A stretch of DNA of 33,622 nucleotides, from assembly GCA_017539045.1 (NCBI GenBank), contig JAFYHS010000023.1:1-33622 (forward strand). The letters run 5' to 3'. A program made the translations under genes and the position numbers. Under the pieces are notes generated by a model, which made no database searches, had not been told where the DNA came from, and was given only the letters and a program-made list of their open reading frames with translations. This DNA comes from Bacteroidales bacterium (GTDB lineage: Bacteria > Bacteroidota > Bacteroidia > Bacteroidales > F082). Every line of letters starts with the position of its first letter. Positions within the stretch are counted from its first letter, which is position 1. This document shows positions 26,949-33,622 of this stretch, in pieces.

Positions 26949-29542
26949 CAGACTTTGGCTTCTTCTTTGGCTTCGTTTAGGACTTTTTTCTCGTTCGGGA
27001 TGATGTTGACTAGTGTCTCCTCGCCGTTTTCGGCCATGTCGATGCTTATGGTGTCGCCGATGTGGAGGTTGGACGAGATGATGGCTTCGGCCAGCACGTC
27101 TTCCACGTACTTCTGGACGGCACGCTTCAGCGGACGGGCACCATATTGCTCGTCCCAGCCCTTCTCGGCGAGGAAGTCCATGGCCTTGTCTGTGATTTCG
27201 ATCTTGTAGCCCATCTCTTCGACGCGTTTCACCACCTCGCGGATCTCGATGCCGATGATCTTCCGGATATCGTTCTTATCCAAGGCGTTGAACATCACCA
27301 CGTCGTCGACGCGGTTGAGGAACTCGGGGGCGAAAGTGCGCTTCAAGGCGTTGTCGATGACGCTTTGCGAGTACTCGTTCTTCGAGTTGAGCTTGGCCTG
27401 CGTGCCGAAGCCCACACCCTGACCGAAGTCCTTCAGCTGGCGTGAGCCGATGTTGGAGGTCATGATGATGATGGTGTTCTTGAAGTCGACCTTGCGACCC
27501 AGGCTGTCGGTCAGCTGACCGTCGTCGAGGACTTGGAGCAACAGGTTGAACACATCGGGGTGTGCCTTCTCGATCTCGTCAAGCAAGACGATGGAATAGG
27601 GCTTGCGACGCACCTTCTCGGTGAGTTGGCCGCCTTCTTCGTAGCCCACATATCCGGGAGGCGCTCCCACGAGGCGCGACACAGCGAACTTCTCCATGTA
27701 TTCGCTCATGTCGATGCGGATGAGGGCATCCTCGCTATCGAAGAGGAATTTGGCCAGCACCTTGGCGAGGTAGGTCTTACCGACGCCCGTGGGGCCGAGG
27801 AAGATGAATGAGCCGATGGGCTTGTTCGGGTCTTTCAGTCCGGCACGGTTGCGGCGGATGGCGCGGGTCACTTTCTTGATGGCCTCGTCCTGGCCGATGA
27901 CGGTGCCCGCCAACTCGGTCTCCATGTGCATCAGGCGGTCGCCTTCGTTCTTGGCGATGCGCTGCACGGGTACACCGGTCATCATGGCGACGACCTCGGC
28001 GACATTTTGCTCGGTCACAGGCTGACGGTGCGCCACCGCGTTGTCCTCCCATGCCTTCTTGACGTCTTCGAGCTGTGCCATAAGCTTCACCTCTTCGTTG
28101 CGGTACATGCCCGCCTCTTCGAACTTCTGCTCGGCGATGGCGGCTTTCTTGTCCTTGCGCACGGCGTCGAGACGGCTTTCCAACTCAGTGATCTCGCTCG
28201 GCACGTCAATGTTCTTGATGTGTACGCGCGCACCAGCCTCATCCAAGGCGTCGATGGCCTTGTCGGGCAGGTGACGGTCGCTGAGGTAACGGTCGGTGAG
28301 CTTCACGCAGGCTTCAATGGCCTCGGGCGTGTAGGTGACCAAATGATGGTCTTCGTATCTCGGTTTGATGTTATTCAGGATCTCGATGGTCTCGGCGGGC
28401 GTGGTAGGCTCGACGAGGATCTTCTGGAAGCGGCGTTCCAAGGCGCCGTCTTTCTCGATGTACTGGCGGTATTCGTCCAAGGTGGTGGATCCGATGCACT
28501 GCAACTCGCCACGCGCCAAGGCAGGTTTGAACATGTTGCTGGCATCCAGCGAGCCATTGGCGTTGCCTGCGCCGACGAGGGTGTGGATCTCGTCGACGAA
28601 GAGGATGATGTCGCGGTTGTTCTCCAACTCGTTGAGGATGGCCTTGATGCGTTCCTCAAACTGGCCACGGTATTTGGTGCCGGCCACGATGGAGCCGATG
28701 TCGAGCATCACAACGCGCTTATTAAATAAGGTGCGCGGCACGCGGTGCTGCACGATGCGGATGGCCAGGCCTTCGGCGATGGCCGACTTGCCCACGCCAG
28801 GCTCACCGATGAGGATGGGGTTGTTCTTCTTGCGGCGGCTGAGGATCTGGGCGATGCGCTCGAGCTCGCGCTCACGGCCCACGATGGGGTCGAGGCGGTT
28901 CTCTTCAGCGGCTTTGGTGAGGTCGCGGCCGAAGTTGTCGAGCACCGGAGTCTTGCTCTTGATGTTGCTTGTCTTCTTAGGCTTCTCGGGTTGCGGCCGG
29001 ATTTCGTTCATCAGGTCGTCTTCTTCCTCCTCGTCATCATCATTGAAGATGTTGGAAGCATAACCTTGTTGTTCTTCAGGTGCCGACTCTTGCGGGTCGC
29101 TGTTTTCGGCCGTGAAGCGCAGCAGCTCCTGCTTGAAGTTGTCGTAGTTGATGCCTTCAAACTCGAGGTTTTGCGAGATGATGTTGTTCTTCTCGTGCAA
29201 AATGGCCAGCATGAGGTGCTCGGAGCGGACGATGTCCGAATGGAACTCCTTGGCGATGATATAGGTGAACTTCAGCACGCGCTCTGCCTGCTTGGTCAGC
29301 GGCAAGGCCAGCACTTGGCTGGTGTTGCTAGTAGCGGTGCGCACCGAGGCTTCCAGTTTCTTCGAGAATACTTCGATGTTCAGGTTGAGGTTCTCCAAAA
29401 TCTTGATGGCGCTGCTGCCGCCTTCCTTCAACATGCCCAAAAAAAGGTGCTCCAACCCGACGTAAGCGTTGCCCAAACGTTGCGCTTCCTGATGGCTAAG
29501 TGACAAAATGGCACGAACGCGGGGTGAGAATTTTGCATCCAT
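26948..29542 (-). CDS. clpC: ATP-dependent Clp protease ATP-binding subunit ClpC
   Basis: 864 aa. It is a double-ring AAA+ unfoldase feeding ClpP and a general protein-quality-control factor. The Clp_N repeat domain spans residues ~1-145 ('FSPRVRAILSLSHQEAQRLG'). After an acidic linker (~170-190, 'DDDEEEEDD') comes AAA-1 with Walker A 'GEPGVGKSAIAEG' and Walker B 'ILFVDEIHTLVGAG'. A UVR-like middle segment ('AIAEQKFEEAGMYRNEEVKL') separates it from AAA-2 ('LGPTGVGKTYLAKVLA', 'VLLDEIEKAHPDVF'). The UVR segment and length favour ClpC over ClpA or ClpB. It is the first gene of the operon. The promoter-like TACCTTTG lies about 75 bp upstream; no CIRCE-type inverted repeat was seen. Confidence 0.95.
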   Translation of the reverse strand: MDAKFSPRVRAILSLSHQEAQRLGNAYVGLEHLFLGMLKEGGSSAIKILENLNLNIEVFSKKLEASVRTATSNTSQVLALPLTKQAERVLKFTYIIAKEFHSDIVRSEHLMLAILHEKNNIISQNLEFEGINYDNFKQELLRFTAENSDPQESAPEEQQGYASNIFNDDDEEEEDDLMNEIRPQPEKPKKTSNIKSKTPVLDNFGRDLTKAAEENRLDPIVGRERELERIAQILSRRKKNNPILIGEPGVGKSAIAEGLAIRIVQHRVPRTLFNKRVVMLDIGSIVAGTKYRGQFEERIKAILNELENNRDIILFVDEIHTLVGAGNANGSLDASNMFKPALARGELQCIGSTTLDEYRQYIEKDGALERRFQKILVEPTTPAETIEILNNIKPRYEDHHLVTYTPEAIEACVKLTDRYLSDRHLPDKAIDALDEAGARVHIKNIDVPSEITELESRLDAVRKDKKAAIAEQKFEEAGMYRNEEVKLMAQLEDVKKAWEDNAVAHRQPVTEQNVAEVVAMMTGVPVQRIAKNEGDRLMHMETELAGTVIGQDEAIKKVTRAIRRNRAGLKDPNKPIGSFIFLGPTGVGKTYLAKVLAKFLFDSEDALIRIDMSEYMEKFAVSRLVGAPPGYVGYEEGGQLTEKVRRKPYSIVLLDEIEKAHPDVFNLLLQVLDDGQLTDSLGRKVDFKNTIIIMTSNIGSRQLKDFGQGVGFGTQAKLNSKNEYSQSVIDNALKRTFAPEFLNRVDDVVMFNALDKNDIRKIIGIEIREVVKRVEEMGYKIEITDKAMDFLAEKGWDEQYGARPLKRAVQKYVEDVLAEAIISSNLHIGDTISIDMAENGEETLVNIIPNEKKVLNEAKEEAKV

Positions 29543-29616
29543 ATAGTTATAATTCGTTAATTTTCAATACTTTAATAAAAAAACCAACTTTTCACTTGTC
29601 TGATTCGTTCAGAGTG

Positions 29617-29624
29617 CAAAGGTA
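29617..29624 (-). promoter_or_regulatory. -7 element (TACCTTTG) for the clpC operon
   Basis: Exact minus-strand TAnnTTTG, 74 bp upstream of the clpC ATG. It is the same octamer as the transketolase promoter. Between it and the ATG is an AT-rich leader with no recognisable feature. Confidence 0.55.
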
Positions 29625-29671
29625 CAAACAAAAACCGCGCCGCGCCAGTGCCAAAGTCAGATTTTTTATTG

Positions 29672-29799
29672 TGATCTATCGAAGTATAAGCAATAAAAAC
29701 TAGTAATTTATCGAAGTTTATAAGTAAAAAAACAGTAATCTATCGAACTTTATGAGTAAAAAACTTGCAATCTATCGAAGTTTATGTATTTTTGCAGCG
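29672..29799. repeat. Left array: four tandem 32-bp units with core TATCGAA
   Basis: Cores start at 29677, 29709, 29741 and 29773, exactly 32 bp apart. Units share TAATCTATCGAAGTTTA-type sequence followed by an A-rich tail. Unit 4 merges into the ATPase promoter. There are no unique spacers, so it is not a CRISPR array; the 32-bp period is close to three DNA turns, as in arrays of protein-binding sites. Confidence 0.9.
29765..29794 (+). promoter_or_regulatory. -33 TTG / -7 TATTTTTG promoter of the ATPase gene, embedded in repeat unit 4
   Basis: TTG at 29765-29767 and TATTTTTG at 29787-29794 are separated by 19 bp, the best -33/-7 pair in the window. The repeat core TATCGAA (29773-29779) lies in the spacer, so a protein bound to the repeat would block or alter polymerase binding. 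ATG follows 21 bp downstream. Confidence 0.75.
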
Positions 29800-29815
29800 T
29801 AAAAACAGCCTTATT

Positions 29816-31078
29816 ATGGACGCTCAAACGCTGAAAGAAATACTGCTTGACCAGCAAGAAGAGCTCAAGGACACCGACTTGACAACATTAATCAGTCGTT
29901 ATGAAGAGCCTCGACTTCATCTCGACAGCCGTCTTGCCCAGGTGGTTATTGGAGTGAGAAGAAGTGGTAAGTCTATCCTGTGTTACAAGGTTTTGCAACA
30001 GTCAGGAGTCAATTATGCCTACGTCAATTTTGACGACGAGCGGTTGACTACATTGACGACAGAGGACCTGAATACCGTCCTTGATGTCCTTTATCGCATC
30101 TATGGCGACTTCAAGCATCTGTTTCTTGATGAAATACAAAACATCGAAGGGTGGCCGCTGTTTGTCAATAGGCTGCTCAGAAAAGGAATGCATATCTTCC
30201 TGACGGGATCGAATGCCAAATTGCTCAGTAACGAATTGGTTACACACCTTACGGGTAGACATCATAAAGTCGAACTTTATCCTTTTTCTTTTGCCGAATA
30301 CTGCAAAATGAAGAATGTCGATACGCAATCCCTGACAACAAAAGCAAAGGCATTGAGGATTAAAGTGTTAGAGGAATATATGCAAGGTGGTGGATTCCCT
30401 GAATTATTCAACGAGACCGACAAACGTGAGTATATCCAAGGCCTGATGGACTCCATTATTAAGAAAGACATTGCCAAACGGTTCAAGTTGAGGCATGTGG
30501 AGGTACTGAGAAGAATGGCAACCTATTTGTCTGACAATTACTGTCAGGAGTTTGTGGCATCCAAAGTGGCTTCTTTGTTTGGGATTTCGGATCATACGGC
30601 AGAAAACTATTATTCTTATCTCAAACAAGCTTTCCTGCTCATCGGGGTGAATAGGTTCTCCTTCAAAAGTGCCGAACGCGTGTTGAATGAAAAAGTCTAT
30701 GTGGTTGATACAGCCTTTGCCACCGACAAAGAGGGCACGTTGGCTACAGAAAACTTGGGTTGGCGATTGGAGAATGTCGTCCTTGTTGAGTTGCTTAGAA
30801 GGACCAAACCTGAGTTCGCCGATGTGTTTTACTATAAAAGCCGTGAAAGGCAGGTGGATTTTGTGGTTGCAAAGGATGGCAAGGTGCAAGAATTGGTTCA
30901 GGTCTCTTACGACATCTCCCATCCGAAAACCGAGCGTCGGGAGGTGAAAGGTTTGAAGGATGCCTCAAAAGCATTGGGATGCAATCGTATGACACTGATT
31001 ACTTTGGATAGCGAAAAGACTATCTCAACGGAAAACGGGACAATACAAGTGGTTTCTGCCGCGAACTGGCTGACGTGA
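29816..31078 (+). CDS. AAA family ATPase with DUF4143 domain
   Basis: 420 aa from ATG 29816; the TTG upstream at 29765 lies in the promoter. AAA_14-type ATPase domain: Walker A 'GVRRSGKS' (residues 46-53), Walker B 'HLFLDEIQN' (101-109), and 'LTGSNAKLLSNEL'. A helical/winged-helix-like part follows (~225-275, 'EFVASKVASLFGISDHTAENYYSYL'). The C-terminal DUF4143 domain has a PD-(D/E)XK-like pattern: 'GWRLENVVLVELLRR', 'RQVDFVV', 'ELVQVSYDI'. Function of this widespread family is not established; they are often multicopy accessory genes. The winged-helix-like part and the repeats over its own promoter make autoregulation plausible (inference). Rhs-like remains follow immediately. Confidence 0.85.
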   Translation: MDAQTLKEILLDQQEELKDTDLTTLISRYEEPRLHLDSRLAQVVIGVRRSGKSILCYKVLQQSGVNYAYVNFDDERLTTLTTEDLNTVLDVLYRIYGDFKHLFLDEIQNIEGWPLFVNRLLRKGMHIFLTGSNAKLLSNELVTHLTGRHHKVELYPFSFAEYCKMKNVDTQSLTTKAKALRIKVLEEYMQGGGFPELFNETDKREYIQGLMDSIIKKDIAKRFKLRHVEVLRRMATYLSDNYCQEFVASKVASLFGISDHTAENYYSYLKQAFLLIGVNRFSFKSAERVLNEKVYVVDTAFATDKEGTLATENLGWRLENVVLVELLRRTKPEFADVFYYKSRERQVDFVVAKDGKVQELVQVSYDISHPKTERREVKGLKDASKALGCNRMTLITLDSEKTISTENGTIQVVSAANWLT

Positions 31079-31270
31079 TTCCAAGCCAACCGTTTTGGAT
31101 ATCAGCATTTGCAATGCGAAAGAGGGCTCGTTTTAAAAGGTAAAGGTTTAGAAATTCATCCTGTTTATTTTGGAACTCAAAAACAAATACTAACTCAAGA
31201 AAAGCTAATGATAAATGCCTATTTCATAAATAACGGACATCTTCCCCCTGGGAACCGCATTTTCAGATAG
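31079..31270 (+). pseudogene. Unstarted reading frame resembling an Rhs-type toxin C-terminal tip
   Basis: Right after the ATPase TGA the same frame stays open for 63 codons to TAG 31268-31270, with no good start codon near its beginning. It reads 'FQANRFGYQ', which resembles the Bacteroidota Rhs-core '(R/N)(F/Y)G(Y/F)QGQ' segment, then a soluble, basic stretch ending in 'NGHLPPGNRIFR'. It stops 24 bases before the immunity-like gene, the normal order for a polymorphic toxin and its antidote. The Rhs core expected between these parts is missing, so it looks like a deletion remnant. Family assignment is by eye and tentative; it may be a fortuitous open stretch. Confidence 0.4.
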
Positions 31271-31294
31271 AATAGAAACAATAAACAAAACAAT

Positions 31295-31738
31295 ATGAAT
31301 ATTTCAATTGGTTATATTGCCACAAATTTATCAATTAATAATACCACAACACTTAAATTGTTTTCGGATAACCTGAATTGTCGTATCAAAGAGCATGATT
31401 ATGGTACCTCTATTTATACGTTCTATATTAGCTTTATTTGTGTATTACCAGACTTTGAGTCTTTTCTCAAACCGAGAAGACCTAAATATATCGAATACGA
31501 AGAAACGATAATCGATGGCCGTCTATGTAAGTTCGAAAGAACTTTTGAATGCGAGCTAAAGCTAGATTACTCAATAATGAGTAAGGCTACGGAAGAAGAG
31601 GCAAAGAAAATCGTCGCTCAATCCATCATTGAGTTTCTTCACGTCTTGAAAATGCCAAAAAAAGTGACCGATTTCGACAAAGACAGGTTTGTGGCTGATA
31701 TGGAAGCGTTCTTTCGGGAGGAACAACTGATAGACTAA
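31295..31738 (+). CDS. Small AT-rich protein, possible polymorphic-toxin immunity protein
   Basis: 147 aa, soluble, no signal peptide. The first two thirds look beta-rich ('TSIYTFYISFICVLPDFESF', 'PRRPKYIEYEETIIDGR'), the last third helical ('ATEEEAKKIVAQSIIEFLHVL'). I recall similar proteins beside Rhs toxins in Bacteroidota (Imm44-like), but I cannot confirm the family. Base composition is clearly richer in A/T than the housekeeping neighbours, which suggests transfer. No TAnnTTTG element lies directly upstream, so it may once have been co-transcribed with a toxin gene. The next reading frame begins within its stop codon (TAATG). Confidence 0.6.
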   Translation: MNISIGYIATNLSINNTTTLKLFSDNLNCRIKEHDYGTSIYTFYISFICVLPDFESFLKPRRPKYIEYEETIIDGRLCKFERTFECELKLDYSIMSKATEEEAKKIVAQSIIEFLHVLKMPKKVTDFDKDRFVADMEAFFREEQLID

Positions 31739-31950
31739 TGTACACGTGCCAAACATATTATCAGCCATCAAGCATCACGATTGCTTACGATGCCCACGGC
31801 ATCTTAGGCGGTGCATCCACTTGGGCCCGTGGCGGCAACTTCAGCATTGGTTTTGCCTCAGGCACGGTGGCCTCGTTTATGACCACAACCGCAGACGTGT
31901 TGACCCAAAACCTGTGCGAGGCGTATGGCAGTACATTTATCGTAGTTTAA
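31738..31950 (+). pseudogene. Fragment resembling the Rhs pretoxin hydrophobic segment
   Basis: 70 codons. The central part, 'HGILGGASTWARGG' followed by 'FSIGFASGTVASF', matches the HGxxGGA...GG.F..GFA.G..AS pattern common just before the toxin domain of Rhs proteins. The preceding residues from the ATG look unrelated. The frame ends at TAA 31948-31950, inside the first unit of the right repeat array, so the gene appears cut off at that boundary. It is too short to be a working toxin. An alternative frame (31746-31967) has no recognisable content. Confidence 0.45.
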
Positions 31951-32012
31951 GCGAGAAAAACTTGTAATCTATCGAAGTTTACAAGTGGAAAATCGGTAAT
32001 CTATCGAAGTTT
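31933..32012. repeat. Right array: three 32-bp units (one degenerate)
   Basis: Cores at 31938 (TATCGTA, degenerate), 31970 and 32002 (TATCGAA) keep the 32-bp spacing of the left array. The stretch AAAAACTTG-T-AATCTATCG... at 31956 onward matches the junction of left units 3 and 4 at 29758 onward, apart from one base in its core. The -33-like TTG is kept, but no -7 octamer follows. Unit 3 is conserved only to about 32011. It lies between the Rhs-like fragment and gyrA. Confidence 0.85.
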
Positions 32013-32087
32013 GGGCGATTTCAATCCCCGCAAACACGCCAAAACAACAAAATCCACATTATTTTAAAAAGGTATCGAAAATTTCCC

Positions 32088-32095
32088 TATCTTTG
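32088..32095 (+). promoter_or_regulatory. -7 element (TATCTTTG) for gyrA
   Basis: Exact TAnnTTTG, 37 bp before ATG 32133 and 76 bp after the right repeat array. No clear -33 TTG was found. Confidence 0.6.
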
Positions 32096-32132
32096 CACCC
32101 TTATTTGTAAAAGCGAAAAATAGAACCAGAAA

Positions 32133-33622
32133 ATGGACGAAAACAATATCAACAATCCTGAAAATCAGGAAGAAATGCCTGAAGAACTCTCAGGAGAAAA
32201 AATTATCAAGGTTAATCTTGAAAACCAGATGAAGTCGGCTTACATCGACTATTCGATGTCGGTCATCATCTCGCGTGCCTTGCCCGACGTGCGCGACGGC
32301 CTCAAGCCCGTGCACCGTCGTGTGCTCTACGGCATGAAGGAATTGGGTGTCACCTCACGAAGCGGCTACAAGAAGTCGGCCCGTATCGTCGGTGAGGTGC
32401 TCGGTAAGTACCACCCGCACGGCGACTCGTCGGTCTACGACGCTATGGTGCGTATGGCCCAGAGCTGGTCACTGCGTTATCCTTTGGTCGACGGCCAAGG
32501 TAACTTCGGCTCGGTGGACGGCGACAGCCCCGCCGCCATGCGTTACACCGAGGCGCGCCTTCAGAAGATCGCTGAAGAGATGCTCGACGACCTCGACAAG
32601 GATACCGTCGACTTCCAGAACAACTTCGACGACTCGCTGCAGGAGCCTACCGTGCTGCCTACCCAGATTCCTACCTTATTAGTGAATGGTACCAACGGTA
32701 TCGCTGTGGGTATGGCCACCAACATGGCTCCCCATAACCTCAGCGAATGCGTCGACGGCATCATCGCCTATATCGACAACCGCGAAATCACCACGCCGGA
32801 GCTGATGCAATACATCAAGGCTCCCGATTTCCCGACTGCCGGTGTCATCTACGGCTACGAAGGCGTGCGCGAGGCGTTTGAGACGGGTAGGGGACGCATC
32901 GTCCTTCGCGGCGAGACCCACTTCGAGGAACACAACGGTCATGAGCGCATCATCGCCACTTCCATTCCTTATCAGGTCAACAAGGCCGAGATGATCAAGA
33001 AGACCGCAGACCTCGTCAACGAGAAGAAGCTGGAAGGCCTGGCCGACATCCGCGATGAGTCAGACAGAAAAGGTATCCGCGTGGTGTACGAACTGAAGCG
33101 CGACGCCAACCCTGACATCGTTTTGAACAAGCTGTTCATGATGACTCCGCTGCAGAGCTCGTTCAACGTGAACAACGTGGCTTTGGTCAACGGCCGTCCC
33201 TATACCTTGAACCTCAAGCAGCTGATTGAGCACTTTGTGGCCCACCGTCATGAGATCATCCTGCGCCGCACGCGTTTCGAGCTGAAGAAAGCCGAAGACC
33301 GTGCCCACATCTTGGAAGGTCTGGCCCGCGCCATCGACATCGTCGACGAGATCATCGCCACCATCCGTGCCTGTAAGGGCGGCACGCCCGAAGCCAAGCA
33401 AGCCATCATGGACAAGTTCGGCTTCGACGACCCGCAAGCCAGCGCCATCGTGGCCTACCGCCTCGGTCAGTTGGCCGGCCTCGAGATCAAGAAGATCATG
33501 GACGAGTTGGACGAAATCCACGAACGCATCAAGCATTTCCACGAAATTCTACAGAATGAGGAATTGCAGTTCCAGATCATCAAGGACGAACTGCTGGTCA
33601 TCAAAGAAAAATATGGCGATGC
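32133..33622 (+). CDS. gyrA: DNA gyrase subunit A (3' end outside window)
   Basis: 496 complete codons are present; the gene runs off the right edge. Start [14 protein letters not shown], with a short acidic extension, then '[20 protein letters not shown]' and '[16 protein letters not shown]'. The winged-helix segment has '[20 protein letters not shown]', and the catalytic Tyr138 is in '[11 protein letters not shown]' (E. coli Tyr122, offset 16). '[18 protein letters not shown]' and a coiled-coil region follow. It breaks and rejoins DNA during negative supercoiling. GyrA fits better than ParC by close match around the active site, though Bacteroidota paralogues are similar. Confidence 0.92.

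What the first reader, a model, noticed from the sequence alone, without database searches (positions are those of the whole stretch)
29672..32012. Repeat-bounded accessory islet with a DUF4143 ATPase and Rhs-like remains between clpC and gyrA
Two arrays of the same 32-bp unit (four copies left, three right) enclose about 2.3 kb holding one ATPase and three Rhs/immunity-like pieces, inserted between two housekeeping genes. The arrays could be ends of a mobile module or sites handled by the ATPase. The repeats, phase and gene order are seen directly; mobility and a functional link are inference.
Basis: partly seen in the sequence, partly recalled or inferred. Interest (0 to 1): 0.8.

Follow-up and report, generated by a model that had tools for sequence, protein, structure and literature searches.

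The report
Defence-candidate ATPase with own repeat array
A widespread, uncharacterised bacterial ATPase that is listed as a possible anti-phage gene carries beside its promoter its own row of evenly spaced short repeats, most likely the DNA switch that it binds to control itself; the second row beyond the gene looks like a partial copy of the first, not the end of a mobile element.

Summary
In detail: four units (29674-29783) and three units (31935-32012), 32 bp apart, bracket an AAA_14/DUF4143 ATPase and Rhs-toxin/immunity remains in a 2.4-kb insert between clpC and gyrA. Each unit is a conserved 14-nt core plus a variable spacer. The arrays do not behave as element ends. Among relatives with at least 44% protein identity, 50 of 55 have such an array upstream (51 of all 78 tested; 3 of 351 control genes), period 32-33 bp, with a core that changes with the protein; archaeal and chlamydial relatives show the same spacing. 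In this clade the last core lies between the promoter's -33 and -7 boxes. The right array is a partial, ordered copy of the left one. Relatives show the empty site, the ATPase without a right array, or arrays without the ATPase. Six genomes hold five different ATPases of this family here, all matching PADLOC's PDC-S01, reported as the fourth commonest defence candidate; most such candidates await validation. Best reading: the array is the ATPase's own operator, bound through a winged helix at three-turn spacing and acting in cis. Binding itself is untested. I found no description of such arrays in the literature searched.

The parts
29669..32045 (.). whole insert between clpC and gyrA relative to the empty site of genome G068
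   Evidence: alignment of both flanks to L122 (G068): left homology ends at 29668, right resumes at 32046, 6 bp replaced
29674..29783 (+). left array: four 14-nt cores ATCTATCGAAGTTT or near copies (units at 29674, 29706, 29738, 29770), period 32 bp
   Evidence: same position upstream of the gene in relatives
29765..29794 (+). predicted Bacteroidales promoter TTG-N19-TATTTTTG with the fourth core in its spacer
   Evidence: sequence; -7-like box 16-21 nt after the last core start in 19 of 21 arrays of the two nearest clades; the consensus is recalled
29816..31078 (+). AAA_14 + winged helix + DUF4143 ATPase, 420 aa, PADLOC PDC-S01
   Evidence: Pfam; PADLOC PDLC04787 E 2.6e-101; model pLDDT 90.6
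31109..31270 (+). 53-aa C-terminal remnant of an Rhs toxin tip
   Evidence: ends NGHLPPGNRIFR, as does the Rhs protein of L339; that of L340 ends HGFLPPGNKIFR; both have the Rhs core domain TIGR03696
31295..31738 (+). Rhs-tip immunity-type protein, 147 aa, open frame intact
   Evidence: 100% identical copy in G066; homologues directly behind Rhs proteins in L339 and L340
31738..31950 (+). Rhs-tip fragment; its last codons run into the right array
   Evidence: matches two separate segments of G091 (L156), i.e. an internal deletion relative to G091
31935..32012 (+). right array: three cores, partial copy of left units 1-3
   Evidence: spacer of right unit 1 best matches left unit 1 (15 of 18), right unit 2 best matches left unit 2 (13 of 18); identical unit pair upstream of gyrA in G091

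Best explanation
The left array is the private operator of the ATPase gene. The ATPase, a STAND/ORC-like P-loop protein with a winged helix and a C-terminal PD-(D/E)XK-type domain whose usual lysine is missing in this clade, binds the 14-nt cores in cis. Because cores lie 32-33 bp (three helical turns) apart on one face of the DNA, several protomers assemble side by side; the one on the last core covers the promoter, so the gene is kept low and is released when the protein is titrated or changes nucleotide state. Array and gene travel together as one unit. The insert arose by repeated gene turnover at a hotspot between clpC and gyrA; the right array is a relic of a duplication of the left one, and the Rhs pieces are unrelated cargo. 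Shown: array-gene linkage, spacing, position at a promoter-like sequence, covariation with the protein, copy relation of the right array, empty site. Inferred: that the ATPase itself binds, repression, cooperativity, and any role in defence.
For: Array (score at least 32, lag 31-34) upstream of 51 of 78 relatives against 3 of 351 control genes from the same loci (at any lag 52 of 78 against 13 of 351); of those 3, one is another AAA_14/DUF4143 ATPase and two are stranded array copies; mean score peaks only at lags 31-33. Of 55 relatives with at least 44% identity 50 have it, of 21 with at least 60% 20. Over 52 arrays: gaps 32 (89), 33 (35), 31 (2); neighbour-unit identity 0.76-0.98 in the core, 0.31-0.60 outside; an exact -7-like box 16-21 nt from the last core start in 19 of 21 arrays of the two nearest clades, and 27-36 nt in 18 of the 20 others that have one. 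Unit similarity follows protein identity (Mantel r 0.846, 0 of 5000 permutations, n=48). The same 32-33-bp spacing is seen by eye in archaeal and chlamydial relatives. Homology between the window and G070's 83% copy at another site runs 29677-31032, array plus gene and nothing else. A different AAA_14/DUF4143 ATPase has its own array, GGAATAAGTG at 33 bp, in 7 of the 13 genomes with that array; the other 6 lack it, and three of these lie in the clpC-gyrA gap. In 99 genus genomes 8 have exact type-A unit pairs: at ATPase A (or its truncated copy), beside clpC or gyrA, or, once (G043), at another PDC-S01 ATPase. Winged helix read from alignment and model; Foldseek neighbours include 2fna, Apaf-1, Avs5 and ORC subunits, with TM-scores of 0.26-0.48 by query length.
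Against: No binding data. No protein segment, the winged helix included, stands out once overall identity is removed (largest partial r 0.19), so the core-protein match could be plain co-inheritance. More distant PDC-S01-type genes of the genus mostly lack a three-unit array (7 of 59 near the gene, 0 of 59 further upstream at lag 31-34; 9 and 2 at any lag), and 0 of 27 from other Bacteroidota and 1 of 16 in the own genome passed the first, stricter cut-off. In 13 of 52 arrays no exact TANNTTTG follows the last core; in L048 the last core lies at the start codon itself. Five of 55 close relatives lack the array (L059, L076, L083, L086, L091), two of them (L076, L083) partial matches. Retained orphan arrays might have a function of their own.
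Confidence: 0.66

Rival explanations
1. The array is the operator of a host regulator or nucleoid protein that silences this class of acquired genes; the ATPase does not bind it.
For: The array lies at the promoter; host silencing of acquired AT-rich genes is a known theme (recalled).
Against: The core differs between ATPase subclades within one genus and is shared within a subclade across phyla: L071 (filed as Spirochaetaceae) and L086 (filed as Succinatimonas) carry cores like those of Bacteroidales relatives, though both are MAG contigs and misbinning is possible. A host factor would read one core per host.
Confidence: 0.14
2. The two arrays are the ends, or recombination sites, of a mobile module that the ATPase moves, or into which it inserts.
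For: Array-ATPase-array order here and in L040 and L051, and 39-bp repeats on both sides in L090; L036 shows array plus gene at another site.
Against: The right array is rare and, in the window, L040 and L051, a copy of the left one; absent in the 96% relative; no transposase-like match, inverted ends or visible target duplication. G052 still holds the array and a short sequence resembling the ATPase 3' end, which looks like deletion rather than clean excision (my reading).
Confidence: 0.08
3. The array is a decoy or sensor for a phage protein, which by binding it induces the ATPase.
For: PDC-S01 is a candidate defence gene; the array lies at the promoter.
Against: Paired units of three array types were not found in IMG/VR contigs beyond one coincidental coding match; the one array seen there, in L309, stands before an ATPase relative; the core follows the ATPase.
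Confidence: 0.07
4. Ordinary tandem duplication without function.
For: Tandem repeats arise easily; orphan arrays exist.
Against: Cores are conserved while spacers diverge to background and the period stays at 31-33 bp over 52 arrays; 51 of 78 against 3 of 351.
Confidence: 0.03

Closest known systems
PDC-S01 (PADLOC phage-defence candidate, AAA_14 + DUF4143, COG1373-type ATPase)
   Same: Sequence match E 2.6e-101; same two domains; single gene. That COG1373 is this family is recalled.
   Different: No mention of a private upstream array in the passages read; in this clade the PD-(D/E)XK motif reads D...QxS/A/T/C, without the usual lysine.
Iteron / operator arrays of self-regulated initiators (RepA-type, recalled)
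   Same: Short direct repeats on one helical face beside the promoter of the gene for the presumed binder.
   Different: No replication genes in the insert; spacing of three turns instead of the usual two (recalled); ATPase of another family; chromosomal.
STAND ATPases such as Avs, and the archaeal AAA+ ATPase Sso1545 (2fna)
   Same: P-loop plus winged-helix fold; 2fna is the best structural match, E 4.7e-9, TM 0.48/0.55.
   Different: No large sensor repeat domain; 420 aa; upstream DNA array.
Rhs toxin-immunity cassettes
   Same: 31109-31270, 31295-31738 and 31738-31950 are remains of such a cassette.
   Different: Core and most of the toxin are gone; only the immunity gene is intact.

Membership tests
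PDC-S01 / AAA_14-DUF4143 ATPases | profile match over the whole protein | tested here: met
   PDLC04787 residues 31-419, E 2.6e-101; AAA_14 and DUF4143 above cut-off
PDC-S01 / AAA_14-DUF4143 ATPases | PD-(D/E)XK fold with catalytic D, E/Q and K | tested here: inconclusive
   E319, D348, Q362 invariant in 60 aligned sequences, but the lysine position reads S/A/T/C; the model has a mixed alpha/beta C-terminal domain; no nuclease was among the 50 listed structural matches
PDC-S01 / AAA_14-DUF4143 ATPases | anti-phage activity | not testable with these tools
Operator / iteron array | direct repeats, constant helical spacing, core conserved and spacer not, adjoining the promoter | tested here: met
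Operator / iteron array | bound by the product of the adjoining gene | not testable with these tools
   only covariation, not localised to one segment
Transposon or integrative element bounded by the arrays | terminal inverted repeats, target duplication or a recombinase | tested here: not met
CRISPR array | near-identical repeats of about 23 nt or more, similar-sized unique spacers, cas genes (recalled) | tested here: not met
   14-nt core, 18-nt spacer; no cas match in the four ORFs scanned
Known structured RNA | Rfam match at gathering score | tested here: not met
   0 matches in window 28500-33622
Rhs toxin-immunity cassette | immunity homologue directly behind an Rhs core with toxin tip | tested here: met
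   L339 and L340, whose upstream proteins match TIGR03696 Rhs_assc_core at E 4.9e-12 and 1.3e-16; Pfam gave no match for them

The most novel reading that the evidence does not exclude
Self-addressed defence ATPases: each PDC-S01 gene of this kind owns a private array on which inactive protomers are parked in cis as an ordered filament, and the array is the sensor. Invading DNA or a phage factor that pulls protomers off the array both derepresses the gene and frees the effector, and the array-protein pairs have diversified so that the several copies in one genome do not cross-talk.
Probability: 0.12. Interest if true: 0.85.

Novelty: new variant of a known kind. Interest (0 to 1): 0.66.

Why it matters
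PDC-S01 is reported as the fourth most common defence of all prokaryotes (PMC12988326) and the most frequent individual locus in a rumen genome survey (PMC13356809), while experimental validation is said to be pending for most candidates of this class (passages read). A conserved upstream array offers a concrete DNA ligand to test for this protein family, could explain how several related copies share a genome, and gives a cheap marker: orphan arrays record where such genes once sat. My literature searches showed no description of it; they cover only open PMC papers, listings rather than full texts, and one search was swamped by unrelated hits.

Tried and rejected
Element ends: rejected (no inverted ends, no visible target duplication, right array rare). 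CRISPR and structured RNA: rejected. A regulon in trans: no evidence; in the window's own assembly the exact 13-mer occurs only here, and exact type-A pairs in 99 genus genomes only at ATPases or beside clpC/gyrA. The orphan array near a response-regulator gene in L040 is a copy of that locus's own ATPase array with its upstream gene. Phage origin of the arrays: no support (the one match, L308, is coding coincidence); 26 relatives of the ATPase do occur in IMG/VR contigs, and of the one whose upstream sequence I read (L309) it shows about four 32-bp-type units. Locating the specificity residues by windowed partial correlation: nothing stood out.

First statistic, with the control 99th percentile as cut-off (38.5), gave 20 of 78 relatives, 1 of 16 in the own genome (at lag 40; the window's own array scored 38 and missed it) and 0 of 27 from other Bacteroidota; the controls proved to contain arrays of other ATPases, so one search lists fixed cut-offs from 28 to 36 (57 of 78 against 8 of 351 at 28; 40 against 2 at 36; all lag 31-34). 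The choice of 32 was made. Controls are ORFs of at least 200 aa, not proven genes. The strict unit-pair pattern over the order found 1 of 393 genomes, the window's own, because it asks for one core type only. Of the 80 loci (L071, L087) were dropped for short upstream sequence; one of 28 phylum loci (L194) likewise; of 60 distant genes, which I picked by hand from the list, 1 (L262) was dropped.
Full report
What is there. The arrays lie as described. What repeats is a 14-nt core, ATCTATCGAAGTTT or a near copy, followed by a variable 18-nt spacer, so that starts fall every 32 bp. Left: four cores, 29674-29783; right: three, 31935-32012, same orientation. In the own assembly (2.36 Mb, 81% complete) the exact 13-mer occurs only here. 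The ATPase at 29816-31078 has AAA_14 and DUF4143 domains, matches PADLOC's PDC-S01 at E 2.6e-101, and gives a confident AlphaFold2 model (pLDDT 90.6, pTM 0.90). Its nearest solved structures by Foldseek are the archaeal AAA+ ATPase 2fna (E 4.7e-9), Apaf-1, RuvB, ORC subunits and the STAND defence protein Avs5; all TM-scores by query length are below 0.5. The own genome has 16 matches to DUF4143 at E up to 0.001, 13 of them above the curated cut-off.

The array belongs to the ATPase. I fetched 80 relatives with flanks; 78 had enough upstream sequence. With a three-unit repeat score over lags 20-50, 51 of 78 had a strong array (score at least 32) at lag 31-34, against 3 of 351 other ORFs of the same loci (52 and 13 at any lag); of these three, one is another AAA_14/DUF4143 ATPase and two are stranded arrays. 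The mean score rises clearly only at lags 31-33. Of the 55 relatives with at least 44% identity 50 have the array, of 21 with at least 60% 20 have it; the misses are L059, L076, L083, L086 and L091, of which L076 and L083 are partial matches; of the other 23 only L108 passes. Fifty-two arrays (51 plus the window) have gaps of 32 bp (89), 33 (35) or 31 (2); neighbouring units agree at 0.76-0.98 per base inside the core and 0.31-0.60 outside (the core window was chosen as the best one, which inflates the inside values). Chlamydial and archaeal relatives show two or three units at 32-33 bp by eye.

Position. In the window the fourth core lies between TTG (29765-29767) and TATTTTTG (29787-29794), a good match to the Bacteroidales promoter (consensus recalled). 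An exact TANNTTTG follows the last core in 39 of 52 arrays. It starts 16-21 nt after the core start in the two nearest clades (19 of their 21 arrays) and 27-36 nt in 18 of the 20 others, the exceptions being L054 (22) and L055 (51); 13 of 52 have none, and in L048 the last core lies at the start codon. A protein on the last core would therefore cover the promoter spacer or, in the other clades, roughly the -33 region.

Core and protein vary together. Core types include TATCGAAGTTT, TTATGGAAATAG, GTAAAATAAGGCA, TATCGGCAGT and TTTTGTGCAGT. Over 48 aligned array-bearing proteins, core similarity follows protein identity (Mantel r 0.846, 0 of 5000 permutations), median similarity being 0.75 at 60-70% protein identity and 0.57 at 40-50%. 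This can be common descent; windowed partial correlations did not single out the winged helix (largest 0.19). Cores close to those of Bacteroidales relatives occur in contigs filed as Spirochaetaceae and Succinatimonas (MAGs, so misbinning is possible), so the core seems to travel with the gene. Between the window and the 83%-identical ATPase of G070, which lies elsewhere in that genome, homology covers 29677-31032, array and gene only.

The insert and its history. In the genus, clpC and gyrA are divergent neighbours: clpC was found beside gyrA in 18 of 30 short loci and in 5 more genomes among 12 longer stretches. G068 has a gap of about 220 bp without arrays; against it the window's insert is 29669-32045, with 6 bp replaced. 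G051 (ATPase 96% identical) has left array and ATPase, no right array, and instead three units of another type, GGAATAAGTG on the other strand. G061 keeps the left array and the first 78 or so residues of the ATPase, followed on the other strand by a different ATPase with its own 32-bp array. G052 and G084 keep a left-type array but have a BspA-type gene instead of the ATPase (the BspA call by Pfam is for G052, for G084 by the look of its sequence, and gyrA is out of view in G084). G091 has the window's right array before gyrA; its contig starts too late to show the left side. G014 has a third kind of ATPase with four GGAATAAGTG units beside gyrA, clpC being out of view; G065 a fourth with four units of ATAATCTTGAAAAGAT; G077 a fifth, with no clear array. 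The five additional ATPases scanned, four from this site and one from G043, are all PDC-S01. GGAATAAGTG pairs occur in 13 of 99 genus genomes: 7 directly before an ATPase of that kind (four of the seven checked by Pfam), 6 without it. Arrays thus seem to outlive their genes, and the site is a turnover hotspot.

The right array. Its first and second spacers match the left first and second spacers best, 15 of 18 and 13 of 18, and it breaks off in the third unit. L051 and L040 also have a second array, a near copy of the first; L090 has 39-bp repeats on both sides (not pursued). It is best read as a duplication relic. A role at the gyrA promoter is possible but unsupported; the last core ends about 75 nt before gyrA's -7-like box.

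The Rhs part. 31295-31738 is an immunity-type protein: 13 of 99 genus genomes, the own included, have a homologue, one of them (G066) identical, and in L339 and L340 it follows a protein with the Rhs core domain. 31109-31270 carries the end of such a tip, and 31738-31950 is a tip fragment joined by a deletion relative to G091. No Pfam, NCBIfam or PADLOC family was found for these pieces themselves. They look like cargo unrelated to the arrays, although in G004 and G018 a homologue also lies behind another ATPase of this type.

How it most likely works. The ATPase carries a winged helix (my reading of model and alignment). Its C-terminal domain keeps E319, D348 and Q362 but not the usual lysine, so a binding role is at least as likely as cutting. 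Cores three helical turns apart beside the promoter are the anatomy of a cooperative, self-regulated operator. Binding, repression and the link to defence are inference. Generality is limited: of 59 more distant genes of the genus (32-40% identity, picked by hand) 7 have a three-unit array near the gene, against 0 of 59 further upstream; several own-genome paralogues show other repeats or palindromes at their promoters by eye.

What is known. One open paper names DUF4143, in a table (passage read); COG1373 appears in a list of transferred genes (passages). PDC-S01 is described in PMC12988326 and PMC13356809 as very common, and the first says that validation is pending for most candidates of this class (passages only). 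None of the searches showed a report of upstream arrays in its listing; that is not proof that none exists.

Noticed in passing
clpC-gyrA gap: window 29543-32132; L035, L116, L123, L140, L157, L158, L160, L163, L228: The divergent clpC-gyrA gap is an insertion hotspot in this genus: five different PDC-S01 ATPases, BspA-type LRR proteins, lipoprotein-like ORFs and Rhs tips were seen there, against an empty gap of about 220 bp in G068.
   Followed up: partly
L058:4511-4946: An ATPase relative with a much longer array: 14 exact TTTATGGCGTT units 32 bp apart (one gap of 41 holds a run of N), with alternating spacer types.
   Followed up: no
L040:3782-10340: A 348-aa acyltransferase-like gene plus the array is duplicated on both sides of the ATPase and two further genes; the right copy lies before a response-regulator gene.
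   Followed up: partly
L107, L108, L110, L113, L114 upstream regions (Chlamydiae): The cores are palindromic (TGCATTGACAATGCA type) with units about 33 bp apart, which suggests dimer binding in that clade.
   Followed up: no
L167, L169, L172, L178, L180 (own genome): Other DUF4143 paralogues of the same genome have palindromic or repeated motifs of different sequence and spacing at their promoters (for example TTCTTCTATAAAAGAA every 40 bp, TGCTTTCTGTAAAAAGCA every 33 bp).
   Followed up: partly
L090: Repeats of ACGGGTGGTGACCC type, about 39 bp apart, lie upstream and downstream of the ATPase relative and before a second ATPase-like ORF in the same locus.
   Followed up: no
window 31295-31738; G066:C2:260297-260737: The Rhs immunity-type protein is 100% identical in amino acids to a copy in another species of the genus, pointing to recent transfer.
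   Followed up: partly
L343 and L345: In two genomes a homologue of the Rhs immunity gene lies directly behind a different ATPase of this type on the same strand.
   Followed up: no
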